Shown here: positions 11,575 to 36,063 of the stretch, one piece after another
Layout: the number at the start of each line of letters is the position of its first letter
Numbering within the stretch: the stretch's first letter is position 1
IMG/VR virus record: IMGVR_UViG_3300035070_002022
Location: 1 to 58,762 of that record
Source: a virus
Direction: 5' to 3' (one strand)
DNA length: 58,762 bases
Made by a program: the position numbers and the translations under genes
Notes under the pieces: model-generated
Database searches by the model: none
What the model saw: only the letters and a program-made list of their open reading frames with translations
What the model was told of the DNA's origin: nothing

Positions 11575-11610
11575 TTTTATTATATAATCACGCGTAATTT
11601 AAAAAAACTA
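11575..11610 (-). promoter_or_regulatory. Late-type promoter B (groEL)
   Basis: Read on the minus strand, TAGTTTTTTTAAATTACG is followed by CGTGATTATATAATAAAA, nine bases before the groEL ATG. It shares the same gapless layout as sites A, C and D. Confidence 0.75.
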
Positions 11611-11630
11611 CGCGCAATTTTTATTTATTG

Positions 11631-21215: not shown

Positions 21216-21500
21216 CTATTTTTTACTTTTAGTTTTACGTTTTGGTACCTTGTACCTTTTTTTACCCTCACGTTTAGTACCTTCTCCGTCATTTGCGCGA
21301 TTTCTAGCAACAGTTTCCCATCTTCCGTCCTTGTGATCCCAATCTTTACCTTTAACATTGACACCATTCCTCTTTGCTTTGCGTCTTTCTCTCTGGGCAT
21401 GGGCTTTTTTAGCCTTTCTGTCCGCAGTTTTAGCATAAGCTAGGTCTCTAGCAGCTTTACGCTTCTTCGCCGCAGGCGATAATTTTTGTTTTGAGGCCAT
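21216..21500 (-). CDS. Highly basic protein, first gene of the late leftward operon
   Basis: The 94-residue product is nearly half Lys and Arg: KLSPAAKKRKAARDLAYAKT, then RKAKKAHAQRERRKAKRNG, and a conserved-looking GKDWDHKDGRWETVARNRAN with GEGTKREG. I recall the pattern D-H-K-D-G-R-F with N-R-G-N-D-G from other Bacteroidetes phages. It should bind nucleic acid and may be packaged or act on DNA or RNA. Promoter C is immediately upstream, so it is the first translated late product. Confidence 0.65.
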   Translation of the reverse strand: MASKQKLSPAAKKRKAARDLAYAKTADRKAKKAHAQRERRKAKRNGVNVKGKDWDHKDGRWETVARNRANDGEGTKREGKKRYKVPKRKTKSKK

Positions 21501-21519
21501 TTATTAACATTTTAGTACT

Positions 21520-21555
21520 ATAATATATATTATCACACGAATTATCAAAAAGCTA
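21520..21555 (-). promoter_or_regulatory. Late-type promoter C (fibre operon)
   Basis: On the minus strand TAGCTTTTTGATAATTCG precedes TGTGATAATATATATTAT, 19 bases before the ATG at 21500. It aligns gaplessly with promoters A and B and keeps the GATWATATA core. Confidence 0.7.
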
Positions 21556-21664
21556 CGGGCTGTAAAAATTTTTTGTTGCATAATTATGGGTATAGGGCTA
21601 TATATTATTTTTGAAAATGTTTTTCATTACGGAAATCGATTTCATTTTGCCCACCCCCCCTTGG

Positions 21665-21726
21665 TTTTTAGGGATTAGGGTTTAGGGTTTGCCTTTAGCC
21701 GCGGGTTTACGCCCAGGGTTTAGGGG
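21665..21726 (+). repeat. Telomere-like TTTAGGG cluster with six GGG tracts
   Basis: The plus strand reads TTTTAGGGATTAGGG then TTTAGGGTTTGCC, followed by CGGGTTTACGCCCAGGG and TTTAGGGG. Six runs of three or more G occur within 60 bases, enough for a G-quadruplex with short loops. Confidence 0.7.
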
Positions 21727-21767
21727 TACTAGCTAGGCCTTAGCCAAGGTGCTTGCACGCATCGCGT

Positions 21768-21787
21768 GTATAGCAACGCGTATAGCA
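21768..21787 (+). repeat. GTATAGCA direct-repeat element, copy 1
   Basis: GTATAGCAACGCGTATAGCA is two GTATAGCA octamers at a 12-nt period. Identical copies occur at 22557-22576 and 23307-23326, each a few bases before an early promoter. It is probably an operator or activator site. Confidence 0.6.
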
Positions 21788-21789
21788 TT

Positions 21790-21824
21790 TTGCAGACGGT
21801 TTACGTAGTGTTTTAGATAATATA
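21790..21824 (+). promoter_or_regulatory. Early promoter P1
   Basis: TTGCAGACGGTTTACG, ten bases, then GATAATATA. It shares the exact 35-nt layout with ten other sites. It lies 36 nt before the ATG of the first early gene. Confidence 0.8.
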
Positions 21825-21860
21825 GGTGTAAGATAATAATAATAATAAATAATAATAACT

Positions 21861-21932
21861 ATGATAATATTCTTGATCGCAATACCAATGGCTTTAATAG
21901 CAACCTTCCTAAGATGTAACTGGGATGATTAA
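21861..21932 (+). CDS. 23-residue membrane peptide, first early gene
   Basis: An ATG in the usual AATAACTATG context opens a 23-codon frame. MIIFLIAIPMALIATFLR is a single hydrophobic span, followed by CNWDD. A paralogue with the same span is encoded at 22667-22798, and the 25 bases after both stops are also alike, so the frame is conserved after duplication. It is likely inserted in the host inner membrane as an early takeover or exclusion factor (inference). Confidence 0.6.
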   Translation: MIIFLIAIPMALIATFLRCNWDD

Positions 21933-21965
21933 CCTCAGCCTGTCCTTGACACCAGGGCGGATCCT

Positions 21966-22000
21966 TCGCAGACAAACCACGTCTACTATAAGATAATATA
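21966..22000 (+). promoter_or_regulatory. Early promoter P2
   Basis: TCGCAGACAAACCACG, ten bases, GATAATATA. One change (C for T) in the first box. It lies 26 nt before the next ATG. Confidence 0.75.
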
Positions 22001-22026
22001 AATGTAAGTAACTAAATATAATAACT

Positions 22027-22206
22027 ATGACAAAGATTCTATTCAATACAGTCTACAAGACTATCAACCAGATTACCAACAGTAACAAACTAAACAGACC
22101 AGTCCATATAATATACGGCGGACTGATGGCTGACAACAGTGACATCGAAACAATAACTAAGATACTCGACCGAGAAGTAATAAAGTATAAACTAAAATTC
22201 ATATAA
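22027..22206 (+). CDS. Early protein, 59 residues, unknown
   Basis: The product starts MTKILFNTVYKTINQIT and has a second helix near the end (NSDIETITKILDREVIKYKL). It is basic and probably alpha/beta; no family is recognised. The start is in the AATAACTATG context typical of this block. It is followed two bases after its stop by the next early gene, so the three genes behind P2 form one operon. Confidence 0.65.
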   Translation: MTKILFNTVYKTINQITNSNKLNRPVHIIYGGLMADNSDIETITKILDREVIKYKLKFI

Positions 22207-22208
22207 CT

Positions 22209-22355
22209 ATGAGAATGAAACTAACTGAACAAGAGCAACGAATGTATGACCACTGGGATAGCCTTAGCCTACACACGAACTCATACCAGATCCAACAAGA
22301 ACGACACAATATGTGGATCAATACAATACTTAATAACCGAACTAAAACCAAATAA
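22209..22355 (+). CDS. Early protein, 48 residues, unknown
   Basis: The product is hydrophilic and Gln/Asn rich (KLTEQEQRMYDHWDS, then SYQIQQERHNMWINTILNN), with two probable helices. It starts in ATATAACTATG and ends one base before the next ATG. No family is recognised. The middle gene of the P2 operon. Confidence 0.6.
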   Translation: MRMKLTEQEQRMYDHWDSLSLHTNSYQIQQERHNMWINTILNNRTKTK

Positions 22356-22356
22356 T

Positions 22357-22524
22357 ATGTATCAAACAAATCAACAAGCATGGGACGAAGTAACCCGTGA
22401 ATACCAAGACTCACTCAGAAGAACTGAGGTGTGCCAAAGAATGTTCGGACAGGATAACCTGATCGGCTTAACGGAAGAACAAAAGTTTACGTTCTGGAAT
22501 GAATGCTGGAAGGAGATCTTCTAA
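22357..22524 (+). CDS. Early protein, 55 residues, unknown
   Basis: The start is placed at the ATG at 22357 rather than at an upstream non-ATG codon at 22246, because the latter would run through the previous gene. The product is helical: QTNQQAWDEVTREYQDSLRR, then LIGLTEEQKFTFWNECWKEI. The second helix, with Trp and Cys at its end, suggests a compact two- or three-helix fold. No family is recognised. It is the last gene of the P2 operon. Confidence 0.65.
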   Translation: MYQTNQQAWDEVTREYQDSLRRTEVCQRMFGQDNLIGLTEEQKFTFWNECWKEIF

Positions 22525-22556
22525 GCACAGCGCAGCGGCGGCAACGCCGGAGGCGT

Positions 22557-22576
22557 GTATAGCAACGCGTATAGCA
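22557..22576 (+). repeat. GTATAGCA direct-repeat element, copy 2
   Basis: Identical to the 20-nt element at 21768. It ends ten bases before early promoter P3. A short GGCG/CGCC hairpin lies just upstream (22537-22548). Confidence 0.6.
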
Positions 22577-22586
22577 AATGGAGAAC

Positions 22587-22621
22587 TTGCAGACGAATTA
22601 CGTTGTATTTTAGATAATATA
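22587..22621 (+). promoter_or_regulatory. Early promoter P3
   Basis: TTGCAGACGAATTACG, ten bases, GATAATATA. It serves the second membrane-peptide gene 45 nt downstream. Confidence 0.8.
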
Positions 22622-22666
22622 TGTGAATAAAGAAATTAATAATAATAACTAATAAATAAAATAAAT

Positions 22667-22798
22667 ATGATTTTAATCGCAATCGCAATTCCAGTAGCAT
22701 TAGCAGCAACGTTCTTAAGAACTAACAACAACACACAAACCTTTAAGGAGATCCTTGAGGACCTTGGACGCGGAGCCGGGCATGCCATGAGAAATTAA
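22667..22798 (+). CDS. 43-residue membrane peptide, paralogue of the first early gene
   Basis: The product has the same hydrophobic span as the 21861 peptide (MILIAIAIPVALAATFLR), then a cytoplasm-like tail (TQTFKEILEDLGRGAGHAMR) that the shorter copy lacks. Preceding leader, promoter, repeat element and following 25 nt are all related to the first copy, which marks a cassette duplication. The tail may bind a host partner. Function unknown. Confidence 0.65.
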   Translation: MILIAIAIPVALAATFLRTNNNTQTFKEILEDLGRGAGHAMRN

Positions 22799-22831
22799 CC
22801 TCAACATGTCCTTGATACCGAGGAGAGAATT

Positions 22832-22866
22832 TTGCAGACAAACTACGACTATAAATAGATAATATA
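22832..22866 (+). promoter_or_regulatory. Early promoter P4
   Basis: TTGCAGACAAACTACG, ten bases, GATAATATA. It lies 37 nt before the ATG at 22904. Confidence 0.8.
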
Positions 22867-22903
22867 ACTGAATACTAATAATAATAACTAAACACTAATA
22901 ACT

Positions 22904-23221
22904 ATGAATACAAATGAAATTTTATCAAACGCACTAAAAACTATGTCAAACGAAGAAAAAGCTAAAATCTTCCCACCGATCGAAAGAAAGAACTTCGTAG
23001 TCCGTGAAAGCTGGATGAACCGAAATCAAATCATAACCTTTGTGAATAACAAAAATCAAAAAGTTACTTACAATCATGATGAGGTGTTGAATGCAATGCT
23101 ACCTAAGTTACAGTTCCAAGCTTGCTGGCTCAAGCGAAAGTACTGGTCACAAAGTACTAACTTGCCAACGAATGTACGCCACCTGGCTACGATCGAAGAG
23201 CTCGAGTCTACTGAAAAGTAG
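22904..23221 (+). CDS. Early protein, 105 residues, unknown
   Basis: The product starts NEILSNALKTMSNEEKAKIF, a helical acidic segment, then a central stretch (RESWMNRNQIITFVNNKNQK) and a helical C-terminal half (LNAMLPKLQFQACWLKRKYW). It could be a small DNA- or protein-binding factor; nothing in the sequence names it. It is a single-gene unit behind P4. Confidence 0.65.
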   Translation: MNTNEILSNALKTMSNEEKAKIFPPIERKNFVVRESWMNRNQIITFVNNKNQKVTYNHDEVLNAMLPKLQFQACWLKRKYWSQSTNLPTNVRHLATIEELESTEK

Positions 23222-23306
23222 GCTTAAGCTTTGGCTAGTAACTTAACACACCGCAAAGTGTGTATAGCATAGGTATGTTCCGACCTCAACGGCCGGTGCA
23301 AGCGGT

Positions 23307-23326
23307 GTATAGCAACGCGTATAGCA
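23307..23326 (+). repeat. GTATAGCA direct-repeat element, copy 3
   Basis: Identical to copies 1 and 2 and 17 bases before promoter P5. A partial copy (GTGTGTATAGCA) lies at 23258-23269. Confidence 0.6.
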
Positions 23327-23343
23327 CGGTAAAAGCGGTCACC

Positions 23344-23378
23344 TTGCAGACGAATTACGCTCACCTAAAGATAATATA
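23344..23378 (+). promoter_or_regulatory. Early promoter P5
   Basis: TTGCAGACGAATTACG, ten bases, GATAATATA. It lies 22 nt before the ATG at 23401. Confidence 0.8.
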
Positions 23379-23400
23379 TGTGAATACAAAATAACACACT

Positions 23401-23556
23401 ATGGAAAAAGAATTTAAAGATTGGATGGAAGACGGTAATGTAGAAAAGATCGGTGAAGATACCTATATTGAGCAGACTACTCAGTGGAGAAAGAAATTTA
23501 CGATGTCCGAGTTAATCGGGTTTTACAACCGAGAGTACCGATTGAGTCAGTTTTAA
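23401..23556 (+). CDS. Early protein, 51 residues, unknown
   Basis: The product is acidic at the N-terminus (KEFKDWMEDGNVEKIGED) and ends with FTMSELIGFYNREYRLSQF, which could be a helix-turn. No family is recognised. It is a single-gene unit, followed by the largest non-coding stretch of the early block. Confidence 0.6.
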   Translation: MEKEFKDWMEDGNVEKIGEDTYIEQTTQWRKKFTMSELIGFYNREYRLSQF

Positions 23557-23828
23557 GAGTCGATGTAGAAAAAAACGGATCTCACTGAGCTAACTTAGTG
23601 AATAACTAAGCTTTTGGTAATAAATACTAGAGTAGTGTAGTCAGAGACTAACTATTAGACTAGAGTACTAATTTACTCATGGTAATAAAAGTACACTTAA
23701 AGAACTAGTATTTAATTAAATTAATATAATTACATGTTTAGGGGTGAAAGCTACAGTAAATATGGGATTATTTTAAGGAATAAGTGGTATTAAGTGCTTG
23801 CAAGTGGCTACGGTAATGGTTGTCATGG
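23557..23828 (+). other. Non-coding AT-rich stretch inside the early block
   Basis: There is no convincing ORF for 340 nt up to the next gene. It holds a CTTAG/CTAAG hairpin near 23593-23609, two ACTAGAGTA repeats (near 23627 and 23660), two GGTAATAAA copies, an unbroken A/T-rich core at 23709-23739, and a TTTAGGGGT box at 23737-23745 also present at 21719 and inverted at 28307. Candidates are an origin or an untranslated RNA. Confidence 0.45.
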
Positions 23829-23863
23829 TTGCAGACTAATTACGAACACCTTTTGATAATATA
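23829..23863 (+). promoter_or_regulatory. Early promoter P6
   Basis: TTGCAGACTAATTACG, ten bases, GATAATATA. It heads a four-gene operon starting at 23899. Confidence 0.8.
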
Positions 23864-23898
23864 AATGTAACTAAAAATAACTAATAAAACTATAAAAT

Positions 23899-24051
23899 AT
23901 GTGGAGTAACTGTTGTGGCGCTGAAGCCAGCTATTTAAGCGATGAATTATGTGGTGATTGCCTAGAGCACGCTGTATTTGATGATGAAGACGAAGATATG
24001 GGTGACACCTGTAGAAACGGAAAAGAATGGAATAAATGTAACTGTTGTTAA
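23899..24051 (+). CDS. Cys-rich early mini-protein, zinc-ribbon-like
   Basis: The 50-residue product has an N-terminal SNCCGAEAS and LCGDCLEHA, i.e. a CxxC-like pair then CxxC, the usual spacing of a small zinc ribbon. A very acidic middle (FDDEDEDMG) and a Cys-rich end (KCNCC) follow. It probably binds zinc. It could be an adaptor to host RNA polymerase or another protein, but this is inference. The next gene begins two bases after its stop. Confidence 0.65.
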   Translation: MWSNCCGAEASYLSDELCGDCLEHAVFDDEDEDMGDTCRNGKEWNKCNCC

Positions 24052-24053
24052 CT

Positions 24054-24245
24054 ATGATACTAGATATGCAATTAACCGACGAAGAAATAAAAGAAATAGC
24101 GGATCGTATGGACGACCTAATGTGGGAGGGATTCCACGATATAGTAGACGATGTGTACCGCCAACGTGAAGATTCCTCGTATGACTACGAGATTTGGGAC
24201 GAAGATATAATTAAAGTAAGAAAAGAATTAAGAAAATATATATAA
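24054..24245 (+). CDS. Acidic helical early protein, 63 residues
   Basis: The start at the ATG at 24054 (AACTATG context) is chosen over an upstream TTG at 24045. The product is strongly acidic with long helices (MQLTDEEIKEIADRMDDLM, then YDYEIWDEDIIKVRKELR). Small acidic early proteins often mimic DNA or inhibit host enzymes; this is only a possibility here. No family is recognised. Confidence 0.65.
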   Translation: MILDMQLTDEEIKEIADRMDDLMWEGFHDIVDDVYRQREDSSYDYEIWDEDIIKVRKELRKYI

Positions 24246-24247
24246 CT

Positions 24248-24424
24248 ATGGAATTTAATGTAACACTAACTAACACTGAACACAATGTACTAATGGTTGC
24301 GCTCGACCACATGTACGAACACCTAGACGATCTGCGAGGTGAGTGGGATGACGAAGATGCAGAAATTATTAATGTAAAAAGAATGGCGGACGTTAGGTTA
24401 CTACAAAAACTATTTAAACAATAA
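24248..24424 (+). CDS. Acidic helical early protein, 58 residues
   Basis: The product MEFNVTLTNTEHNVLMVAL continues to HMYEHLDDLRGEWDDEDAE and ends in a basic helix (VRLLQKLFKQ). It looks like a helical bundle. It starts two bases after the previous stop in the same AACTATG context. No family is recognised. Confidence 0.62.
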   Translation: MEFNVTLTNTEHNVLMVALDHMYEHLDDLRGEWDDEDAEIINVKRMADVRLLQKLFKQ

Positions 24425-24428
24425 AACT

Positions 24429-24644
24429 ATGAAAAATAACGAATACGTATACCTATGGGTACTAGATTTTAATGACGGACAAGTATATAAATATAACATA
24501 GACAAAGCAATATACAACGATTACCCCGATCACTGCGAAGATTACATGCAAAAAGTAGGTCACGAAATTAATAACGTACAGTGGATGGTATCCCCTTACG
24601 ATGAAGTGCTAGACGAAAATAACGGGTGGAACGTTGCAGACTAA
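24429..24644 (+). CDS. Early protein, 71 residues, unknown
   Basis: The product opens with a strand-rich region (YVYLWVLDFNDGQVYKYNI) and ends VQWMVSPYDEVLDENNGW then NVAD. Its last codons lie inside promoter P7: the VAD-stop codons are the GTTGCAGACTAA of the promoter box. It may be a small beta protein. No family is recognised. Last gene of the P6 operon. Confidence 0.65.
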   Translation: MKNNEYVYLWVLDFNDGQVYKYNIDKAIYNDYPDHCEDYMQKVGHEINNVQWMVSPYDEVLDENNGWNVAD

Positions 24645-24668
24645 ATACGTACACCGATCGATAATAAC
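24634..24668 (+). promoter_or_regulatory. Early promoter P7
   Basis: TTGCAGACTAAATACG, ten bases, GATAATAAC (last bases differ). It overlaps the 3' end of the previous gene and lies 27 nt before the ATG at 24696. Confidence 0.75.
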
Positions 24669-24695
24669 AATGTAACTAACCAACAATATATAACT

Positions 24696-24851
24696 ATGAC
24701 TAAAGAATTATCACCCTTACAACGTTCGTTCGATCGAATCAACGAATTAATACCAGACAACAGCGACGTAATGCTCCGATGTAGCTTATACGAAATGTGC
24801 GCTGAATTAACTAACGAATCCTTCGCTGAAGGAATTAACGCTAAATACTAA
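24696..24851 (+). CDS. Early protein, 51 residues, unknown
   Basis: A helical product: PLQRSFDRINELIPDNSD, then RCSLYEMCAELTNESFAEG. Two Cys residues are present, with no clear metal site. First gene of the P7 operon. It starts in ATATAACTATG. No family is recognised. Confidence 0.6.
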   Translation: MTKELSPLQRSFDRINELIPDNSDVMLRCSLYEMCAELTNESFAEGINAKY

Positions 24852-24856
24852 TAACT

Positions 24857-25189
24857 ATGAATTACAAAGTAAAAATTAACGACCGAAGCTTAAGTATAAA
24901 CCTAATGCACAACAGTGTTATCGATCTCGGTATATTCACTGTAAAAGCTACAACTCACACATTCTTGTTTGAAGCTAAAGACACTGATTGGGGTGCGGAT
25001 ATAAATGAAACGGAACTTGAGTTCTACGTCAACAACAAACGATGCAAGTATGTAGGGTTCAAAGAATTGTACACTCAATTATACGGTAACTCCTTTAAAA
25101 CCTTTGAAGCCGATATAATAAGGCAAACCGAAGAAGTGGTTGCAAAACAAATTGTTAAAGAATATCCAGGAACTGATGTAAACTATTAA
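24857..25189 (+). CDS. Early protein, 110 residues, unknown
   Basis: The product is beta-rich at first (YKVKINDRSLSINLMHN, IDLGIFTVKATTHTFLFEAK) and then has a helical segment with charged residues (KELYTQLYGNSFKTFEADII). This could be a small binding protein with a beta sheet followed by helices. No family is recognised. It lies in the P7 operon with a 5-nt gap upstream and 11 nt downstream. Confidence 0.65.
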   Translation: MNYKVKINDRSLSINLMHNSVIDLGIFTVKATTHTFLFEAKDTDWGADINETELEFYVNNKRCKYVGFKELYTQLYGNSFKTFEADIIRQTEEVVAKQIVKEYPGTDVNY

Positions 25190-25200
25190 ATATAACAACT

Positions 25201-25401
25201 ATGAAAAATGTAAATACCTTTATCGAAAAAGAATTAACGAACCTAAATCGCGGCATCATAGCTACGCCTAGCGAAGATTACCTCGATCAATTTACCGATG
25301 CTAACCACGGAACCAACGATTTTTTACTAATGCAAATGTCAAAGCAGTACGGCTACAAGCTAGCGTTACTTGCTATACGCGAACAACTAAAAACCAAATA
25401 A
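25201..25401 (+). CDS. Early protein, 66 residues, unknown
   Basis: The product has an N-terminal helix (NTFIEKELTNLNRGII), a loop with DQFTDANHGTNDF, and a second helix (QMSKQYGYKLALLAIREQL). It is probably a small helical domain. No family is recognised. Middle of the P7 operon, two bases before the next gene. Confidence 0.62.
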   Translation: MKNVNTFIEKELTNLNRGIIATPSEDYLDQFTDANHGTNDFLLMQMSKQYGYKLALLAIREQLKTK

Positions 25402-25403
25402 CT

Positions 25404-25607
25404 ATGAATACAATTAAATTTAACAGAGTAACTAAAAATATTATATTAAACGGTGTAGGCTATCGACCATACGCTGTCGGCGAACTACCTAACTCATTCG
25501 GTTTCTTATCGAATGAAGACAGCGAGCAAGACGGTATATCTAAGTGGTTCAACCTCAACGGCTTAACCTATGTCAAAGATGATAGACCTAAAAACAAAAG
25601 GTATTAG
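25404..25607 (+). CDS. Early protein, 67 residues, unknown
   Basis: The product is basic and beta-like: TIKFNRVTKNIILNGVGYRP, then FGFLSNEDSEQDGISKWFN. The last gene of the P7 operon, it stops three bases before promoter P8. No family is recognised. Confidence 0.62.
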   Translation: MNTIKFNRVTKNIILNGVGYRPYAVGELPNSFGFLSNEDSEQDGISKWFNLNGLTYVKDDRPKNKRY

Positions 25608-25609
25608 CG

Positions 25610-25644
25610 TTGCAGACAAAGCACGCTTACCGATCGATAATATA
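25610..25644 (+). promoter_or_regulatory. Early promoter P8
   Basis: TTGCAGACAAAGCACG, ten bases, GATAATATA. It lies 23 nt before the ATG at 25668. Confidence 0.8.
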
Positions 25645-25667
25645 TATGAATTTAAAACCAAACTATT

Positions 25668-25733
25668 ATGACTAAATTAAAAAAATTATTTACTAACCTA
25701 GCCATCGGCGCTGCCTATGCTATACGCAATTAA
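25668..25733 (+). CDS. 21-residue early peptide
   Basis: A 21-codon frame: MTKLKKLFTNLAIGAAYAIR ending in Asn. It is basic then hydrophobic, so it could be amphipathic and lie on the membrane. Support comes from the proper distance to P8, the two-base spacing to the next ATG, and similarity in style to the other membrane peptides of this block. Confidence 0.5.
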   Translation: MTKLKKLFTNLAIGAAYAIRN

Positions 25734-25735
25734 CT

Positions 25736-25930
25736 ATGACACTAACTGAACACCAAAAAAACGAACTCAATACTGTAGCAGACTCTATTGCGTACTATAT
25801 TGAAGACCATTTACGTGAAACTATATCATGGCAAATGCCGGATAGCTTAGTAGATGATTTGCAAGAAGAACAATTCATGGACGCTATGGGATATGCGTAC
25901 GAAAAAGTATTACAATTACTAACAGAATAA
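25736..25930 (+). CDS. Acidic helical early protein, 64 residues
   Basis: The product is acidic and helical (EHQKNELNTVADSIAYYIED, then SLVDDLQEEQFMDAMGYAYE). It may form a three-helix fold. No family is recognised. The stop overlaps the 5' edge of the structured RNA candidate that follows (25931-26098). Confidence 0.65.
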   Translation: MTLTEHQKNELNTVADSIAYYIEDHLRETISWQMPDSLVDDLQEEQFMDAMGYAYEKVLQLLTE

Positions 25931-26098
25931 GTAGTATCACGAATGACAGCGTAATTAACTGAAAGCACGGTGCAAGTCCGATCCTGCAAAGGAAGATAAC
26001 TACTAGGCGAAAGATACGATTCATGATCACGTAATAGCCGCTAACCGCGAAAGGAACGCCACTTAGCTAGTGAAGGAGTTCGAATCTCCTTGCGGTTA
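25931..26098 (+). ncRNA. Structured RNA candidate with a tRNA-like 3' end
   Basis: A gene-free 170-nt stretch inside an operon. The 3' part folds as a tRNA lacking a D-arm: AACCGCG (26043-26049) pairs with TGCGGTT (26091-26097), AGGAG and CTCCT enclose a TTCGAAT T-loop (26074-26090), and CACT/AGTG closes a small central hairpin. The 5' part has AGTAGT (25930-25935) pairing with ACTACT (25999-26004) and holds CGGTGCAAGTCCG (25968-25980), a core seen both in tRNA T-arms and in cobalamin riboswitches. The length between acceptor and T-arm (24 nt) is too short for a normal tRNA. It may be a tRNA-like RNA, a riboswitch variant or an attachment-site remnant. Confidence 0.45.
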
Positions 26099-26116
26099 CT
26101 AATTTTAAACTAAACT

Positions 26117-26476
26117 ATGGGAAGACTAATTGAAATATCACCACAACAAGATGTTGTTAATAAAATTAATGCGAAAGCAGATTTTACTCACAACATAAAC
26201 CAAACAAGACTAGAGCGCTACACTGTTAGCATAAAAAATGTGTTTACAGGTAAAAACCCATCGCTATTTCTTAAAGATACATGGAAAGTGGTAGACGATG
26301 CATTTAATAGCGATCAAGAACTGCTTGGCGGTTGGCTAAGTGAAGATGATATATATTTTCTTGACTATGGATTAAGCGTAACCGATCTTAAAAAAGCTAT
26401 GAAAATAGCTAAATTTAACAAACAATTAGCAATATACGACAATGTGTCGCAAAAAGTAATACCAGTTGCAGACTAA
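26117..26476 (+). CDS. Early protein, 119 residues, unknown
   Basis: The product carries an N-terminal segment (ISPQQDVVNKINAKADFTHN), a basic beta region (RYTVSIKNVFTGKNPSLF) and a C-terminal helix (SVTDLKKAMKIAKFNKQLAI). It ends PVAD: the codons sit inside promoter P9. It lies 18 nt after the structured RNA candidate, so it is the gene most likely controlled by it. No family is recognised. Confidence 0.62.
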   Translation: MGRLIEISPQQDVVNKINAKADFTHNINQTRLERYTVSIKNVFTGKNPSLFLKDTWKVVDDAFNSDQELLGGWLSEDDIYFLDYGLSVTDLKKAMKIAKFNKQLAIYDNVSQKVIPVAD

Positions 26477-26500
26477 TCACGTCTACCTAATGATAATATA
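26466..26500 (+). promoter_or_regulatory. Early promoter P9
   Basis: TTGCAGACTAATCACG, ten bases, GATAATATA. It overlaps the end of the previous gene and lies 23 nt before the ATG at 26524. Confidence 0.8.
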
Positions 26501-26523
26501 ACTGAATACAAAATCTAATAACT

Positions 26524-27006
26524 ATGAATATATTTTATTTACATAGCGATCCAGTTATCGCTGCCGAAAAACAATACAATAAACACGTTGTCAAGATGAT
26601 ACTTGAGTCAGCACAGCTACTGTGTTCAGCTCATCACATGCTAGATAGTGAGATAGATGTCCCCTACAAACTAACACACAAAAACCATCCGAGTGCTGTG
26701 TGGACCAGACAATCTAGACAAAACTACGCATGGCTGTATTTTCACATGTTAGCTCTTGGCGACGAATATACTAAGCGCTACGGAAAAAAGCACCTGACCA
26801 TAACTAAGTGCGAAGACGTGCTGTCTAAAACACCTGGTCCGATCTTTAATACCGGCTTGACTGAAATGCCACAATGTATGCCAGACGAGTATAAAGTTTC
26901 AGGCGATTCCGTAGCCGCTTATCGTAATTACTACATCAAAGCAAAATCACACTGCGCAAACCCTGCTAAAGAATTGCTATACGTTAAACCCGAACAATTC
27001 GACTAA
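26524..27006 (+). CDS. Conserved phage protein, possibly DNA-glycosylase-like
   Basis: The 160-residue product starts MNIFYLHSDPVIAAEKQYNK, then HVVKMILESAQLLCSAHHML, THKNHPSAVWTRQSRQNYAW and LALGDEYTKRYGKKH. I recall this pattern as a widespread phage protein; the order of helices with His, Arg and Tyr resembles the T4 pyrimidine-dimer glycosylase group only loosely. It is probably enzymatic or DNA-binding. It is the largest gene of the early block and leads the P9 operon. Confidence 0.65.
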   Translation: MNIFYLHSDPVIAAEKQYNKHVVKMILESAQLLCSAHHMLDSEIDVPYKLTHKNHPSAVWTRQSRQNYAWLYFHMLALGDEYTKRYGKKHLTITKCEDVLSKTPGPIFNTGLTEMPQCMPDEYKVSGDSVAAYRNYYIKAKSHCANPAKELLYVKPEQFD

Positions 27007-27009
27007 ATT

Positions 27010-27159
27010 ATGAGTAAATTCATGATATACAATGCAGATGAAGTAACCTTCATACTAGCAAAAACCCTAGACGAAGCTAGACAATGGGCAATAATGTATT
27101 GCGATCATTCATACGAAATAATAGTAAGAGAAATAAGTGATATTAAATATAAATACTAA
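27010..27159 (+). CDS. Early protein, 49 residues, unknown
   Basis: A compact alpha/beta product: KFMIYNADEVTFILAKTLDE, then ARQWAIMYCDHSYEIIVREI. The pattern strand-helix-strand resembles a small ferredoxin-like half-domain. No family is recognised. It starts three bases after the previous stop. Confidence 0.6.
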   Translation: MSKFMIYNADEVTFILAKTLDEARQWAIMYCDHSYEIIVREISDIKYKY

Positions 27160-27164
27160 AAACT

Positions 27165-27392
27165 ATGAGTAAAGTAACTAAAGAAATCCTGATCGTAGAA
27201 TCAGAAGCGGTGATCTATGCACAGTATAAACACCGAGAAGAAGAACTAATGGTAATGTTTAATCGCGGTGCGACTTACACTTACTTCGATGTACCAACCC
27301 ACGTATGGCGTGGATTACAGACTGCACATTCAGTTGGCAGCTTTGTAAGTAAACACGTACGAATGAAGTTTGAATTTAAACTTACAGACTAA
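27165..27392 (+). CDS. KTSC-domain protein
   Basis: The 75-residue product matches the KTSC domain: EAVIYAQYKHREEELMVMF, then GATYTYFDVPTHVWRGLQTA and HSVGSFVSKHVRMKFEFKL. The domain is common in phages and often fused to lysyl-tRNA-synthetase-related or RNA-binding proteins; its role here is unknown. The last codons (LTD-stop) lie inside promoter P10. Confidence 0.8.
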   Translation: MSKVTKEILIVESEAVIYAQYKHREEELMVMFNRGATYTYFDVPTHVWRGLQTAHSVGSFVSKHVRMKFEFKLTD

Positions 27393-27416
27393 ACACGATT
27401 AATAATAGATAATACA
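27382..27416 (+). promoter_or_regulatory. Early promoter P10
   Basis: TTACAGACTAAACACG, ten bases, GATAATACA. Two positions differ from the consensus. It lies 27 nt before the ATG at 27444. Confidence 0.75.
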
Positions 27417-27443
27417 ATTGAATAATAACTAAATAAATATAAT

Positions 27444-27809
27444 ATGGAAATGACTAAAGAAGAATTACAAAGAAAAGTAGATGAGTTAACACAATCGCTA
27501 GACTCGTTCAGCAAAAACACTGAGATGCTAAAGCAAGATCTTAAAGACGCCGAACATAAACTAAGTGTAGTTAACCGTCCTAAAATTACTAAAAAGTTTT
27601 TAGATGAGCTAAGTGATACTATCGAGGAGGCTGTAGGCAACATAGATTTTACTGATACCAATGCGTACGATTTTGATTTTGAAATAGACTACGATAACAG
27701 AATTGCGTTGAGTAATATAGAATACAATGGCGCGCACGAAATAGGTGATGAAATTTTCTGCAGAGTAGAAGATATGTTTAACGTAACACCGGATGAAGAT
27801 GAGAACTAG
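27444..27809 (+). CDS. Acidic coiled-coil early protein
   Basis: The 121-residue product has a coiled coil at residues 3-45 (KEELQRKVDELTQSLDSF, NTEMLKQDLKDAEHKL), then an acidic C-terminal domain with many Asp/Glu and a beta pattern (FDFEIDYDNRIALSNIEY). It is a candidate for protein-protein contact or DNA mimicry. No family is recognised. It overlaps the next gene by 11-17 nt. Confidence 0.65.
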   Translation: MEMTKEELQRKVDELTQSLDSFSKNTEMLKQDLKDAEHKLSVVNRPKITKKFLDELSDTIEEAVGNIDFTDTNAYDFDFEIDYDNRIALSNIEYNGAHEIGDEIFCRVEDMFNVTPDEDEN

Positions 27810-28068
27810 AGTAAGACAAATGTACACAAGGGGTGGTAATCTTGCCCCTAACCAATTTTTGCTATACACACCTGACGGCACGTACTTCCAAAGTTATAAC
27901 AGTACAATCGCTTTTCGTGATCACAACGGCAAAATACAACTCGACGAAAACACCTGGGATTATTCACGCACTACTGGCAAGTATCGTAACGAATTCTTAG
28001 GTGAATATAAAGAACTAACTAAAGATAAAATATTATCTGGTGAATACCAGTTAACTAACTTAAATTAG
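27793..28068 (+). CDS. Early protein with a GEYxLTNLN end
   Basis: The 91-residue product starts MKMRTRVRQMYTRGGN (the second Met at 27799 is equally possible), then LYTPDGTYFQSYNSTIAFRD, TWDYSRTTGKYRNEFLGEYK and LSGEYQLTNLN. The segment FLG-KE--I-SGEY-LTNLN recurs in Bacteroidetes phage and host proteins I recall without function. It is basic, unlike its neighbours. It overlaps the upstream gene. Confidence 0.65.
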   Translation: MKMRTRVRQMYTRGGNLAPNQFLLYTPDGTYFQSYNSTIAFRDHNGKIQLDENTWDYSRTTGKYRNEFLGEYKELTKDKILSGEYQLTNLN

Positions 28069-28071
28069 AGT

Positions 28072-28302
28072 ATGACAGAAGAAGAGATCCAAAAGATCGT
28101 AGATATGATCGTAGAAGAATTGTTTAAACGTATGGATGCTGAGGCTAGGGCAATGAATGAAGAATTTATTCATGAGCTACCCAGTGACGAAGAGCAAATT
28201 AAAGAGCTAGGATTGTTGCTTAAGTATTACGAGAAGATAGAAGATTATGCTCACGCTGCAAATGTTTTTGCAAATATAAAACGGTTACAAAATAATAAAT
28301 AA
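28072..28302 (+). CDS. Acidic helical early protein, 76 residues
   Basis: The product is helical and acidic at first (TEEEIQKIVDMIVEELFKRM, then EFIHELPSDEEQIKELGLLL) and ends with a basic helix (HAANVFANIKRLQNNK). It is a plausible helical bundle. No family is recognised. It is the last gene before the 160-nt gap that holds a long hairpin. Confidence 0.65.
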   Translation: MTEEEIQKIVDMIVEELFKRMDAEARAMNEEFIHELPSDEEQIKELGLLLKYYEKIEDYAHAANVFANIKRLQNNK

Positions 28303-28334
28303 AGCTACCCCTAAATTATTGTGGATATTTAAAC

Positions 28335-28377
28335 TAGTAGTTATTATTTTTGATTAAAAATAAATATTAAACTACTA
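28335..28377 (+). other. Long A/T hairpin before the sigma operon
   Basis: TAGTAGTT pairs with AACTACTA and TTATTTTT pairs with AAAAATAA around a GATT loop, with a small internal loop between. It has 16 base pairs, almost no GC and no U-run, so it is not a classic terminator. It may be a processing, attenuation or protein-binding site. Confidence 0.6.
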
Positions 28378-28390
28378 TTAAAATTGTTTA

Positions 28391-28420
28391 AGTATACATA
28401 TATAATCACGTGTTTTTATG
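28391..28420 (-). promoter_or_regulatory. Late-type promoter-like site E (leftward, uncertain)
   Basis: On the minus strand CATAAAAACACGTGATTATATATG resembles the late family (ACGTGATTATATA core) but lacks a good AGTTTTTTT box. If active it would make antisense RNA against the early block. It may instead be a forward A/T-rich promoter for the sigma operon. Confidence 0.35.
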
Positions 28421-28463
28421 ACAAACATGCGCGGTATTATGCTAAAGTTTAAAGAAATAATAT

Positions 28464-28616
28464 ATGAATTCAAATGATAAATTAAACGAAGACATCGAGT
28501 ATCCTACTACAGCTAGTAAGTTTGATGCGTGGATGCGTAAAATAAATAATCAGTATTACTCTAATCATCAAGCTATGACAGAGGCATACAAAAAAATGCA
28601 GAATGAAAAAATATAA
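28464..28616 (+). CDS. Small protein before the sigma factor
   Basis: A 50-residue product: MNSNDKLNEDIEYPTTASKF, then DAWMRKINNQYYSNHQAMTE. It is hydrophilic and helical. It overlaps the sigma gene by 14 nt, so it is translated with it; an anti-sigma or sigma-loading partner is a possibility with no direct evidence. Start context AATATATG. Confidence 0.6.
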   Translation: MNSNDKLNEDIEYPTTASKFDAWMRKINNQYYSNHQAMTEAYKKMQNEKI

Positions 28617-29373
28617 TATAAGTAACTACGTTAGATACCAAAAAGATCTTAAACGTACATTAAATAATTTACCTGGTTTATTTTGGGAGGAGTATACCAG
28701 AGATCAACTTATAACTAAGTTCATGCCTTTAACGGAAAACTTAGCAAGAAAATTTGCTACATCACATCAAGCAATTGGTGTGCTAACTATAAATGATCTG
28801 ATACAGTCAGGACATGTAGGTTTAATCAATGCTATCGATAAAATAGATTGGGTAGTGCTAAATGAATCTAAAAATGTAGAACAAACTTTAAAATCTTTTC
28901 TATCAAAAAGAATTAAGGGTACTATTCGAAGATATATTAATCACAACATGGGTGATATCAAAATACCTGAGTGGAAGATCACAGAAATACGTAAGCAACC
29001 AAATAACCCAGCAGTTAGTAATTTGCTAAGCAAATCTAAATCCTTATATATGAGTGATTTTACCGCAAACAATGATAGTGAATCTAATTACGAACTTGAG
29101 ATAGCTGACGATGCACCAGATTACAATGTTACATTTATGAACGAGTATCTTTTAGCATTAATTAAAAAGCATTTAACCGATCGTGAAAGAGAAGTTATAA
29201 GGCTAAGTTATGGTCTTGATTGTGATAAGCATGATGCTGTTGAAATCTGTGAGATACTGGGTATCGAGGGATCTTACAAGAAGAAAGGTGTACGTATATC
29301 AGAGATAAAACGCAAGGCTATTGACAAGCTGATTGACCGTACAAATGATGCACAACTACCTGATTTACTTTAA
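28603..29373 (+). CDS. Phage sigma-70-family factor
   Basis: The 256-residue product has region 2-like sequence near residues 30-75 (LITKFMPLTENLARKFA, LTINDLIQSGHVGLINAIDK) and a region 4 helix-turn-helix near 190-245: LTDREREVIRLSYGLD, then AVEICEILG and RISEIKRKAIDKLIDR. A region 3-like linker lies between. It would redirect host RNA polymerase to phage promoters. Candidates are the late family at 6755, 11575, 21520 and 29395, or the early family. No early-type promoter precedes it. Confidence 0.85.
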   Translation: MKKYNISNYVRYQKDLKRTLNNLPGLFWEEYTRDQLITKFMPLTENLARKFATSHQAIGVLTINDLIQSGHVGLINAIDKIDWVVLNESKNVEQTLKSFLSKRIKGTIRRYINHNMGDIKIPEWKITEIRKQPNNPAVSNLLSKSKSLYMSDFTANNDSESNYELEIADDAPDYNVTFMNEYLLALIKKHLTDREREVIRLSYGLDCDKHDAVEICEILGIEGSYKKKGVRISEIKRKAIDKLIDRTNDAQLPDLL

Positions 29374-29394
29374 TTTATAATTAAAAATAAAGCG

Positions 29395-29430
29395 TAGTTT
29401 ATTTAAAAAATGTGTAATTATATATATAAC
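29395..29430 (+). promoter_or_regulatory. Late-type promoter D (recombination operon)
   Basis: TAGTTTATTTAAAAAATG then TGTAATTATATATATAAC, the only plus-strand member of the late family with a full upstream box. It lies 33 nt before the ERF gene. Confidence 0.65.
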
Positions 29431-29463
29431 ACCAAAGTATTTAAACCAATAAAAACTATATAA

Positions 29464-30036
29464 ATGAAATCAAATTTAAAAATTAAATTAGCCAATATTC
29501 AGGTTAATCTTAAAGCTAAAAAATCCAGATACAATGGGTTTGGTAAATATAATTACCGTGCTGCAGAAGATATACTTGAGGCTATAAAGCCGTTCTTGAA
29601 TCATGAGAAGTGTACGGTTACCATTAATGAAGAATTAATATCTATTGACCCACCAATATTAAAATCAACGGCTAGTATTCATGATGCTGAATCCGACGAT
29701 GCTATACACTCCGACGCTATTGTCGGTGTTGATCTGCTATCTAAAGGTATGTCTATGCCACAAAAATATGGTGCAGCCTCATCTTATGCTAAAAAATATG
29801 CGTTAGGTAACTTATTACTTATTGATGATACGGCAGATGCAGATGCATCTAATGATCACAGTGGTAAGAAAGCTCAGGAAGAGATTACATCAAAAAAATC
29901 TGCACTATATGCTAAAGCATTAAAGTTTGTGCAAGGGGGCGGAGATTTAGAAGCTATATCTAAAAAGTACAAAATGACAGCGGCAGTTAAGAAGGGTCTT
30001 GAAGAAGCAATACCAACTAAAACCGAAACTCTATAA
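29464..30036 (+). CDS. ERF-family single-strand annealing protein
   Basis: The 190-residue product would anneal complementary single strands for recombination. Family signature: KAKKSRYNGFGKYNYRAAED near residues 18-37 then ILEAIKPFL, and MSMPQKYGAASSYAKKYALG near 97-116 followed by NLLLIDDTADADA. The C-terminus is a charged linker with a helix. It is co-translated with the exonuclease downstream (1-nt overlap), the usual two-part recombination system. Driven by promoter D. Confidence 0.88.
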   Translation: MKSNLKIKLANIQVNLKAKKSRYNGFGKYNYRAAEDILEAIKPFLNHEKCTVTINEELISIDPPILKSTASIHDAESDDAIHSDAIVGVDLLSKGMSMPQKYGAASSYAKKYALGNLLLIDDTADADASNDHSGKKAQEEITSKKSALYAKALKFVQGGGDLEAISKKYKMTAAVKKGLEEAIPTKTETL

Positions 30037-30788
30037 TGACGGACGCAAAACAAAAAGAAGTAATTGAATTACTTAGAAGCGACGAAGAGTATTATGACGG
30101 TATAGGTAGACAGTATAGATCAAACTCTGATATATACAAGTTACTTAATGATCCTGAGCAATTTGGAAAGCCAACTGAACAGAACATAAACTTTATAATA
30201 GGTGGTTACATACACACTGCAATACTTGAACCCGATAAACTAGAAGCTAACTATCTTATATCAGAAGCAACAAGCAGAGTAACTAAAGTTTACAAACAAG
30301 ATGTCGCGGACAACGGCGGTAAGATGATGATCTTACGAAAAGAAGTTGAAAAATGCGACATAATGATTAATAAAATAAAAAACAATTCAGTATGTCAATC
30401 TTTATTAGAAGGAGAGCAGGTTATATACGAAGAACCTGGTATCAAAAAAATAAATGATACTTGGTGGAAAGGTAAAGCCGATTGTATCAACAAAGACCAA
30501 GGCTTAATAGTAGATATAAAAACTACTGGCGATATAAATAGATTTAAAAAGAGTGCTAACATATATAACTATGACAGTCAAGCGTACATATATAAAGAGA
30601 TATTTGGATACGATTTAGTGTTCCTCGTAATATGCAAAAAGACACATCAGATAGCTATATACGATTGCTCTGAAGAATTCTATAGTAGAGGCCGTCAGAA
30701 AGTTAAAGCTGCCGTAGAAGCGTACGAAACGCTAATAAACGATCCTTTGTTTGATCTTAAGGACTATGTGAAGACAGATACATTATAG
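30036..30788 (+). CDS. PD-(D/E)XK exonuclease, RecB/YqaJ-like
   Basis: The 250-residue product is the nuclease partner of the annealing protein and would resect double-strand ends. Visible motifs: HTAILEPDKLEANYLI near residues 60-75, WKGKADCINKDQGLIVDIKT near 147-166 (catalytic Asp and the D-x-K), and YDSQAYIYKEIFGYDLVF (motif with Gln and Tyr) near 180-198. The fold is the lambda-exonuclease-like group. Its stop is directly followed by promoter P11. Confidence 0.85.
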   Translation: MTDAKQKEVIELLRSDEEYYDGIGRQYRSNSDIYKLLNDPEQFGKPTEQNINFIIGGYIHTAILEPDKLEANYLISEATSRVTKVYKQDVADNGGKMMILRKEVEKCDIMINKIKNNSVCQSLLEGEQVIYEEPGIKKINDTWWKGKADCINKDQGLIVDIKTTGDINRFKKSANIYNYDSQAYIYKEIFGYDLVFLVICKKTHQIAIYDCSEEFYSRGRQKVKAAVEAYETLINDPLFDLKDYVKTDTL

Positions 30789-30823
30789 TTGCAGACTAAA
30801 TACGATCAACAAAAGATAATACA
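30789..30823 (+). promoter_or_regulatory. Early promoter P11, outside the early block
   Basis: TTGCAGACTAAATACG, ten bases, GATAATACA. It is the only early-type site after the sigma gene. It lies 25 nt before the ATG at 30849. Confidence 0.75.
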
Positions 30824-30848
30824 CATGAATCTAATTAAATTTTTTAAA

Positions 30849-31016
30849 ATGAAACGAACACCAAAACAAACCTGCTCTGTGACAGGTATAAAAACCGCAG
30901 CGAATAATTTTTATAATAACCAAACTCATGTAAAAGCCGTTGACAACATTCGACGAAACACGGGCGCGACAAAAGAACAATTAACTAGAATGTTTAACCA
31001 ATTACAAACGTATTAA
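30849..31016 (+). CDS. Small basic protein before the SSB-like gene
   Basis: The start at 30849 is chosen because an upstream in-frame ATG at 30825 lies one base after the promoter -10 box and could not be leadered; all other early promoters have leaders of 22-45 nt. The 55-residue product starts MKRTPKQTCSVTGIKTAAN and has a helix near the end (NTGATKEQLTRMFNQLQ). It is basic and may bind DNA. No family is recognised. Confidence 0.6.
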   Translation: MKRTPKQTCSVTGIKTAANNFYNNQTHVKAVDNIRRNTGATKEQLTRMFNQLQTY

Positions 31017-31019
31017 ATT

Positions 31020-31331
31020 ATGGCAAGTATTATGAAGGCAAACATAGATCTAAGTAAAATCCCAAAGGATAAGATCTATAAAGGAAAGAAAGGTAGTTAC
31101 CTACCTATTACAATTACAATTAACGATGAGCTTGGAAATTATGGCGACAATGGCCCTATAATAGTAGAGCAAACAAAAGACGAGCGTGACGCTAAAGCAG
31201 ACAAAGTTTACCTAGGTAATGTAAAAGTTGTTTGGACTAACGGCACAAACGTAGATGCAGCGCCCAGAGAGGGTGGCGGTCAACAAGCTGCTCCAGCTCC
31301 GGCTGCGGTAGAAGATGATTTACCTTTCTAA
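31020..31331 (+). CDS. SSB-like single-stranded DNA-binding protein
   Basis: The 103-residue product has a basic start (MASIMKANIDLSKIPKDKIY, KGKKGSYLPITITIND), a strand-rich middle (KVYLGNVKVVWTNGT), a linker rich in Ala, Pro, Gly and Gln, and ends AVEDDLPF. The DDLPF tip copies the acidic C-terminal hook (DDDIPF) of bacterial SSB that recruits other replication proteins. The core does not match a standard OB fold by eye. It sits in the replication block between recombination genes and the primase-helicase. Confidence 0.75.
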   Translation: MASIMKANIDLSKIPKDKIYKGKKGSYLPITITINDELGNYGDNGPIIVEQTKDERDAKADKVYLGNVKVVWTNGTNVDAAPREGGGQQAAPAPAAVEDDLPF

Positions 31332-31423
31332 TGGCAGAGCAATGCGAAATGTGCGGCGAGGTCATGACTAAGTGTGACTTTGAATATTGCGACATCTGTC
31401 CAGAATGCTTAGAAGGAAATTAA
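31331..31423 (+). CDS. 30-residue zinc-ribbon mini-protein
   Basis: The frame starts on the last base of the SSB-like stop codon (TAATG) and reads MAEQCEMCGEVMTKCDFEYC, then DICPECLEGN. Six Cys residues in CxxC pairs fit a small zinc ribbon. It would be translated with the SSB-like protein. Role unknown. Confidence 0.6.
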   Translation: MAEQCEMCGEVMTKCDFEYCDICPECLEGN

Positions 31424-31439
31424 TCTAATTAAATTTATC

Positions 31440-31471
31440 GGGAGTATATAGAAATGTATGCTCCCTTTTTT
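31440..31471 (+). terminator. Intrinsic terminator or attenuator
   Basis: GGGAGTATA pairs with TATGCTCCC (one G-T pair) around an eight-base loop, followed by six T. It separates the SSB unit from the primase unit without a visible new promoter, so it may act as an attenuator with partial read-through. Confidence 0.7.
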
Positions 31472-31485
31472 AACCCTTATATATT

Positions 31486-31647
31486 ATGATAGAACAATGG
31501 TATCAACAAACTATAGGACAACTGATAAATGAAAAAGCAGAGTTAGAAGTAGAGAACACAGATCTAGTAGGATACATACATGCATTACTACAAGGAGATT
31601 GTCCAGAAGAATTAAAAGAACAAATTAAAGAAAAAGTATTTAGATAA
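31486..31647 (+). CDS. Small helical protein before the primase-helicase
   Basis: The 53-residue product is a single long acidic helix with a kink: QWYQQTIGQLINEKAELEVE, then DLVGYIHALLQGDCPEELKE. It overlaps the primase-helicase start by one base (TAATG). It could be a coiled-coil partner of the helicase. No family is recognised. Confidence 0.6.
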   Translation: MIEQWYQQTIGQLINEKAELEVENTDLVGYIHALLQGDCPEELKEQIKEKVFR

Positions 31648-33353: not shown

Positions 33354-33600
33354 GGTAAAAGCTAGCATGATGGGTAAGCACAACCCAAGCGAAGAAGAAG
33401 AAGCTGCAAGACGTTGGTGTATTAATAACAACATAAGAATATCACCCTCGGCAGTAGGCGCTGGAACACCTACAAGATGGATATTAGTATTAGATCTTAA
33501 TGGTAAAATAGTTAACGGCCCTGATCAACTTGCTAAGAACGAAGTGTGGATTAAAATGTATGAGTATTATATGTATTATTATAAAAAATCAAATCAATGA
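33346..33600 (+). CDS. Conserved small protein after the primase-helicase
   Basis: The 84-residue product starts MPKVKASMMGKHNPSEEEEA, then ARRWCINNNIRISPSAVGAG, a strand pair (RWILVLDLNGKIVNG) and a Tyr-rich helical end. It overlaps the helicase by 8 nt and the next gene by 4 nt (ATGA). No family is recognised; co-translation suggests a replication role. Confidence 0.65.
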   Translation: MPKVKASMMGKHNPSEEEEAARRWCINNNIRISPSAVGAGTPTRWILVLDLNGKIVNGPDQLAKNEVWIKMYEYYMYYYKKSNQ

Positions 33601-34626: not shown

Positions 34627-34637
34627 ACAATTAAATT

Positions 34638-36061: not shown

Positions 36062-36063
36062 GA

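What the first reader, a model, noticed from the sequence alone, without database searches (positions are those of the whole stretch)
21790..30823. Eleven copies of a rigid 35-nt early promoter
TTGCAGACNAANYACG, exactly ten variable bases, then GATAATATA and usually TGAA two bases later, occurs at 21790, 21966, 22587, 22832, 23344, 23829, 24634, 25610, 26466, 27382 and 30789. The 26-base distance between box starts never varies. Each copy sits 22-45 nt before an ATG. The 16-base upstream box is far longer than a -35 hexamer, so it may bind a regulator or be read by an unusual sigma region. I know of no described promoter with this form.
Basis: seen in the sequence. Interest (0 to 1): 0.9.

Follow-up and report, generated by a model that had tools for sequence, protein, structure and literature searches.

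The report
Rigid early promoters of flavobacterial phages
This uncultured phage starts eleven of its small early genes from near-identical two-part promoter switches that follow neither the known promoter code of its likely bacterial hosts nor any described phage promoter I could find, and hundreds of copies in related phages show it is a widespread, unstudied way of taking over a cell's transcription.

Summary
All 11 copies are present, on one strand, in one arm of the genome (0 expected by chance). In related uncultured phages I found about 600 further copies, with the 10-bp gap between the boxes essentially never changing (117 of 117, then 505 of 507). Broader consensus: TTRCARAC-NAA-YACG-N10-GATAATATA-NN-TGWA, one copy just upstream of each small early gene. 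"Early promoter" is the best reading, but no transcript data exist. It is not the Bacteroidota sigma-A promoter (TAnnTTTG) and not a general host promoter. I also found a second rigid class, KTAR-N16-GTRATNATA, at exactly three places in the window: behind the phage's sigma-factor gene, before the late operon and before groEL. Both classes put a purine where sigma70 wants T (-12). The phage sigma replaces the two sigma70 residues that read that base. Sigma gene and motif occur together and are both absent from four sigma-less relatives. Favoured mechanism: host core RNA polymerase redirected by a phage-supplied factor, probably this sigma, perhaps with a partner on the 16-bp box. The main objection is that the sigma gene often lies behind a class I site with no other visible promoter, so a host or virion-borne reader remains open.

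The parts
21790..21824 (+). class I promoter copy 1 (before 23-aa membrane-type peptide at 21861)
21966..22000 (+). class I copy 2 (before ORF 22027)
22587..22621 (+). class I copy 3 (before 43-aa peptide at 22667, similar to the one after copy 1)
22832..22866 (+). class I copy 4 (before the conserved 105-aa gene)
23344..23378 (+). class I copy 5
23829..23863 (+). class I copy 6
24634..24668 (+). class I copy 7; its TAA is the stop codon of ORF 24429-24644
25610..25644 (+). class I copy 8
26466..26500 (+). class I copy 9; its TAA is the stop codon of ORF 26117-26476
27382..27416 (+). class I copy 10; its TAA is the stop codon of ORF 27165-27392
30789..30823 (+). class I copy 11 (before ORF 30825, behind the recombination genes)
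28603..29373 (+). phage sigma-70-family factor, 256 aa, regions 2, 3.0 and 4
   Evidence: PHROG 351 E=1.4e-19; profile to PDB SigA E=6e-12 and FliA E=1e-11; fold match to sigma factors
22904..23221 (+). 105-aa early protein, in 18 of 21 motif-bearing records; no family, no fold match
29394..29422 (+). class II promoter: GTAGTTTATTTAAAAAATGTGTAATTATA, between sigma gene and ERF recombinase gene
21528..21556 (-). class II promoter of the late operon (first late gene 21216-21500): GTAGCTTTTTGATAATTCGTGTGATAATA
11583..11611 (-). class II promoter before groEL (10027-11565): GTAGTTTTTTTAAATTACGCGTGATTATA

Best explanation
The eleven sites are early phage promoters ('class I'). Host core RNA polymerase starts transcription a few bases after GATAAT (-10 hexamer, -12G A T A A T-7, so the start falls near the conserved TGWA). 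The 16-bp upstream box lies at about -38 to -23 and takes the place of a normal -35. The specificity factor is supplied by the phage: most likely its own sigma factor (28603-29373), whose region 2 reads the purine-12 hexamer found in both class I and class II. At class I either sigma region 4 plus extra contacts, or a second phage DNA-binding protein seated on the 16-bp box, holds the polymerase in one fixed register. Class II (KTAR-N16-GTRATNATA) is the plain -35/-10 promoter of the same factor for recombination/replication, late and chaperonin genes. Shown: the motif, its rigidity, its position, its lineage distribution, class II and its position, and the sigma family membership. Inferred: promoter activity, early timing, start point, which factor reads which class, any partner protein.
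For: 11 sites versus 0 expected. Spacing invariant in 117 of 117 and 505 of 507 sites. 524 of 591 unique sites have an ORF start within 120 nt, median 24.5 nt after GATAATA, against 213 of 566 random positions. Behind the box alone, with no constraint, the next hexamer is GATAAT in 495 of 596 sites and TATAAT in only 2. Class II: 3 sites in the window versus 0.20 expected, each before a gene start on the coding strand; third-position purine 96 of 102, unconstrained; 16-bp gap in 45 of 48. Sigma: G106 and R109 invariant in 39 homologues, aligned to the sigma70 Q and T that read -12 (residue roles from general knowledge). Sigma found in 28 of 30 motif-bearing records, the two without being 52 kb and 27 kb. 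Motif and sigma both missing from elemo, phi38:1, Panino and from MW202828, whose terminase is 63% identical. Host sigma-A is TAnnTTTG (PMC9723704); TAnnTTTG is not enriched here.
Against: In most relatives the sigma gene sits 2-3 kb behind the last class I site, often with no non-coding gap above 60 nt, and in three records a class I site lies 38-177 nt before it. A promoter that needs sigma cannot make the first sigma unless sigma or its message arrives otherwise. By analogy with other sigma-encoding phages, sigma would drive class II only. A 16-bp box exceeds what region 4 alone reads, and no partner protein was identified. Co-occurrence of sigma and motif may be plain shared ancestry. No RNA data.
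Confidence: 0.42

Rival explanations
1. Class I sites are immediate-early promoters read by host RNA polymerase with a pre-existing host factor (an alternative sigma, or sigma-A with a host activator on the 16-bp box). The phage sigma, itself made from class I transcripts, reads only class II, giving a classical early to middle/late cascade.
For: Gene order: class I sites precede the sigma gene, and class II begins right behind it in many relatives and at the late operon. Six exact or near-exact class I sites lie in Flavobacteriaceae genomes, at promoter distance before ORFs, some outside any recognisable phage.
Against: No host regulon: 12 stretches in 84,980 genomes, about half of them phage contigs; 10 of 400 Flavobacteriaceae genomes at up to 3 mismatches, no better than the reversed control. 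None of the six TSS-derived motifs of F. psychrophilum, as described, resembles it. Other flavobacterial phages examined do not use it.
Confidence: 0.25
2. Class I promoters are read by a factor delivered with the virion: an injected RNA polymerase, sigma or activator hidden in one of the large virion proteins (for example the 3210-aa protein), as in N4, crAss-like phi14:2 or Thermus phage P23-45.
For: Solves the start-up problem and the lineage restriction together; precedent of a virion RNA polymerase fused to a tape-measure protein in P23-45 (PMC10770324, abstract). The 3210-aa protein has no Pfam or PDB match.
Against: No polymerase domain found in the large ORFs by Pfam, PHROGs or PDB sequence search; no DxDGD motif in this protein family, only in adhesin-like proteins; no promoter hairpin. 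About 4 kb of capsid genes is missing from the window.
Confidence: 0.2
3. The motif is not a promoter but a repeated protein-binding or processing site (operator, replication or silencing element).
For: It is long and partly overlaps the ends of coding regions; the closest named relative has a 14-copy palindrome GTGTCGTTAACGACAC in the same region, which looks like an operator.
Against: Strict orientation, one per transcription unit, fixed place before ORF starts, a -10-like hexamer, and no palindrome or hairpin.
Confidence: 0.07

Closest known systems
T4 middle promoters (MotA box plus sigma70 -10; sigma appropriation by AsiA/MotA)
   Same: A phage-type box centred near -30 replaces the -35, a strict -10 hexamer is kept, and spacing is tight (12 +/- 1 bp; PMC2988021). 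Here the box spans about -38 to -23.
   Different: Box sequence, length (16 bp against 9-10) and gap (10 bp, invariant) differ; -12 is G, not T; no MotA or AsiA homologue was seen; the phage has its own sigma with region 4; T4 middle promoters are not the first to be used.
Phage sigma-factor cascades (T4 gp55, SPO1 gp28; from general knowledge)
   Same: A phage-encoded sigma-70-family protein with a distinct promoter class for middle/late genes fits class II.
   Different: Class I does not fit such a sigma's usual regulon because it precedes the sigma gene.
Bacteroidota sigma-A promoter (TTTG / TAnnTTTG)
   Same: Bipartite; serves the presumed hosts.
   Different: No TAnnTTTG box; GATAAT instead; spacing does not fit.
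crAss-like phi14:2 / N4 virion RNA polymerase early promoters
   Same: Multi-copy early promoters not read by host sigma.
   Different: No polymerase gene found; no hairpin.

Membership tests
Bacteroidota sigma-A promoter | -7 box TAnnTTTG | tested here: not met
   definition from PMC9723704
Bacteroidota sigma-A promoter | host genomes carry the motif as a regulon | tested here: not met
T4-type middle promoter (MotA/AsiA) | box centred near -30 at fixed distance from a strict -10 | tested here: met
   distance 10 bp rather than 12 +/- 1
T4-type middle promoter (MotA/AsiA) | MotA box sequence wwwTGCTTtA | tested here: not met
   box is TTRCARACNAANYACG
T4-type middle promoter (MotA/AsiA) | -10 element TAtaaT with T at -12 | tested here: not met
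   GATAAT in 495 of 596, TATAAT in 2
T4-type middle promoter (MotA/AsiA) | MotA and AsiA proteins encoded | tested here: inconclusive
   none among the ORFs scanned; most tiny ORFs not scanned
N4-type virion RNAP promoter | promoter hairpin | tested here: not met
Phage-encoded RNA polymerase promoter (T7, crAss-like or N4) | polymerase gene in the phage | tested here: not met
   no match in large ORFs; no DxDGD motif in this protein family except adhesin-like proteins; about 4 kb of genome missing
Sigma-70 family (the 256-aa protein) | regions 2, 3.0 and 4 aligning to SigA/FliA | tested here: met
Promoter of the phage sigma factor | transcribed by core RNAP plus this sigma | not testable with these tools
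   needs in vitro transcription

The most novel reading that the evidence does not exclude
Class I is read only when a phage factor is present, and some Flavobacteriaceae genomic islands carry the same promoter in front of their own genes (secreted FEGLW-type proteins, MORN-repeat proteins; G053, G054 twice, G055, G056, G057, G140). Those genes would then be silent until infection and switched on by the phage's own transcription factor: a built-in phage alarm or satellite response, comparable to virophage genes carrying giant-virus promoters.
Probability: 0.1. Interest if true: 0.85.

Novelty: new variant of a known kind. Interest (0 to 1): 0.6.

Why it matters
It defines two sequence-exact promoter classes shared by a large, uncultured lineage of flavobacterial phages, gives a candidate reader with a residue-level prediction, and lets early, middle and late genes be assigned from sequence alone. 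Because the lineage appears to lack its own RNA polymerase and does not use the host sigma-A code in the early region, how its first transcripts are made becomes a clear, testable question.

Tried and rejected
Host sigma-A promoter (TAnnTTTG at chance level). General host promoter class. Virion or T7-like RNA polymerase. Hairpin promoter. A 206-aa HTH protein found just before sigma in 7 of 12 genomes: rejected as the box reader because it is missing from the window's own clade. The 105-aa protein as partner: conserved and lineage-specific, but no fold or family match, so left open. Correlating box variants with sigma region 4: no clean pattern by eye. A conserved host-type promoter in the divergent intergenic region: not found. 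Rfam on the window: no match. CACTATCA repeats in phi38:1 and Panino look like translation-start leaders, not promoters.
Full report
OBSERVATION. The motif search returns exactly the eleven listed sites on the + strand between 21790 and 30823 and no other site in 58,762 bases; dinucleotide shuffles give none. The box-to-box distance is constant. The trailing element is TGAA (7) or TGTA (4). The first ATG of an open frame follows 22-45 nt after the box in ten copies; the copy at 30789 has an ATG after 1 nt and another about 25 nt on. Three copies overlap the stop codon of the upstream gene, the TAA inside the box being the stop.

WHERE IT IS. The window is a virus record: a fragment of a tailed phage with terminase, portal (running off the left end), a crAss-type muzzle domain, GroEL/GroES, tail fibres, a 3210-aa late protein, primase-helicase, ERF, RNR, ThyA and a sigma factor. 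By gene order against elemo, roughly 4 kb of capsid genes is missing between the ends. Named relatives by terminase and muzzle infect Flavobacterium, Cellulophaga, Maribacter and Tenacibaculum. One arm (21790-38778, +) holds the motif cluster and the DNA-metabolism genes; the other (minus strand, 21500 down to 1 and 58612 down to 39174) is the late, structural arm. All eleven copies are on the early arm.

RELATIVES. A scan of IMG/VR with the core pattern found 28 stretches in 22 records; a TTACAAAC variant found at least 119 stretches, limited by rows. In the first set (window included) there are 117 sites, all with a 10-bp gap and none at 4-9 or 11-19. In the broader set 505 sites have 10 bp, 2 have 9 bp, none another of 5-15. 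The conserved positions are TTRCARAC, AA, YACG, GATAATA, TA, TG.A and an A-rich leader. Within each record the sites point the same way, apart from one stray 3-mismatch hit and one locus. Of 591 unique sites, 524 have an ORF of at least 35 codons starting within 120 nt, median 24.5 nt after the box; random positions do so in 213 of 566. This anatomy is that of a promoter. With GATAAT as -12 to -7, the start point would fall at the conserved TGWA.

NOT THE HOST CODE. The flavobacterial primary sigma reads TAnnTTTG; F. psychrophilum has three variants of that, a sigma54 motif, TAnnTTGY and an ECF-type motif, none like this one as described (PMC9723704). TAnnTTTG is at chance level in the window. 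A scan of 84,980 genomes found 12 stretches, about half in phage contigs that carry the sigma gene, the 105-aa gene or many copies. In 400 Flavobacteriaceae genomes only 10 had a site with up to three mismatches, about the level of the reversed control.

A SECOND PROMOTER CLASS. Looking for the late promoter I found a conserved element before the first late gene, KTA.-N16-GTAATNATA. In the window the pattern KTAR-N16-GTRATNATA occurs three times against 0.20 expected: 29394-29422 (+) in the gap behind the sigma gene, 21556-21528 (-) before the late operon, and 11611-11583 (-) just before groEL. Behind the sigma gene it is present in 20 of 38 loci with the strict spacing, and GTAATNATA-like sequence is visible in most of the rest. 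Its spacing is also rigid: 45 sites at 16 bp, 3 at 17, 0 at the other spacings tested. Read as sigma70-type hexamers, class I is GATAAT (495 of 596 unconstrained, TATAAT in 2) and class II is mostly AATTAT, AATAAT, GATTAT and AATCAT, with a purine at the third position in 96 of 102. Both therefore keep A-11 and T-7 and have a purine at -12.

THE CANDIDATE READER. The 256-aa protein at 28603-29373 is a sigma-70-family factor with regions 2, 3.0 and 4 (PHROG 351; SigA E=6e-12 and FliA E=1e-11; Foldseek to sigma factors). It was found in 28 of 30 motif-bearing records, the two without being 52 kb and 27 kb long. Motif and sigma are both missing from elemo, phi38:1, Panino and from MW202828, whose terminase is 63% identical to the window's. 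Region 2.4/3.0 reads KRIKGAIRRAIDINRGDIRIPEHK; G106 and R109, invariant in 39 sequences, align with sigma70 Q437 and T440 (that these read -12 is general knowledge). That matches a non-T at -12 in both classes. The conserved, lineage-specific 105-aa protein (22904-23221) folds confidently (pLDDT 88.5) but has no PDB sequence or fold match; it is a possible partner or a host-takeover protein.

THE DIFFICULTY. In many relatives the sigma gene lies 2-3 kb behind the last class I site in a gene-packed unit without a gap above 60 nt; in L253, L072 and L047 a class I site is 38, 135 and 177 nt before it. If class I needed sigma, the first sigma must come from elsewhere (virion, read-through, or a host promoter not recognised here). 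The classical alternative is that class I is read by host polymerase with a pre-existing factor, and sigma reads class II only. I therefore give 0.42 to the sigma-centred model, 0.25 to a host factor and 0.2 to a virion-borne factor.

COMPARISON. In logic class I is closest to T4 middle promoters, where a phage protein's box centred near -30 replaces the -35 while a strict -10 is kept (PMC2988021). It fails membership on box sequence, -12 base and known proteins, so it may work like one but is not filed as one. Literature searches within the held library found no description of this promoter; subscription journals are mostly not covered.

HOST COPIES. A few exact or near-exact sites exist on Flavobacteriaceae contigs: before a secreted-protein gene family (G053, G054 twice, G140, with a truncated signal-peptide ORF in G055), before MORN-repeat genes (G056), and directly after a tRNA (G057). 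In G054 one lies in a region with a recombinase-like gene beside tRNA-Met (gene identity by eye). Whether these are phage-responsive genes, satellites or ordinary host promoters is open.

Noticed in passing
L093 (MW202828) 43747-51770 and 55156: The closest named relative carries 14 copies of the palindrome GTGTCGTTAACGACAC, many 15-45 nt before early gene starts, and lacks the class I motif and the sigma gene: probably an unrelated operator or promoter system in the same place.
   Followed up: partly
L295, L296, L300, L298, L297, L301, L294, L303: Flavobacteriaceae genomic islands carry class I-type promoters before their own small genes, some near tRNA or recombinase-like genes.
   Followed up: partly
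window 21500-21790 and equivalents (L101, L118, L124, L083 and others): The divergent intergenic region contains strongly conserved blocks: an inverted repeat GTGAC..TAG..TATATATAATA..GTCAC in many relatives, and a G/C-rich leader ending in GTATAGCAT just before the first class I site; possibly a regulatory, origin or packaging element.
   Followed up: no
window 21764-21787, 22553-22576, 23303-23326: A 24-nt repeat GCGTGTATAGCAACGCGTATAGCA directly upstream of three class I copies.
   Followed up: no
window 26035-26105 (+): tRNA-like sequence with a T-arm-like hairpin (GGAGTTCGAATCTCC) between early genes; ARAGORN and Rfam do not call it and the fold energy is not unusual.
   Followed up: partly
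window 39174-48806 (-): 3210-aa late protein with no Pfam or PDB sequence match and only a weak PHROG match to polynucleotide kinase (residues 2197-2399).
   Followed up: partly
L319 7826-8047: A Polaribacter genomic-island ORF resembles the phage 105-aa early protein (by eye), near MORN genes with a class I-like promoter.
   Followed up: no
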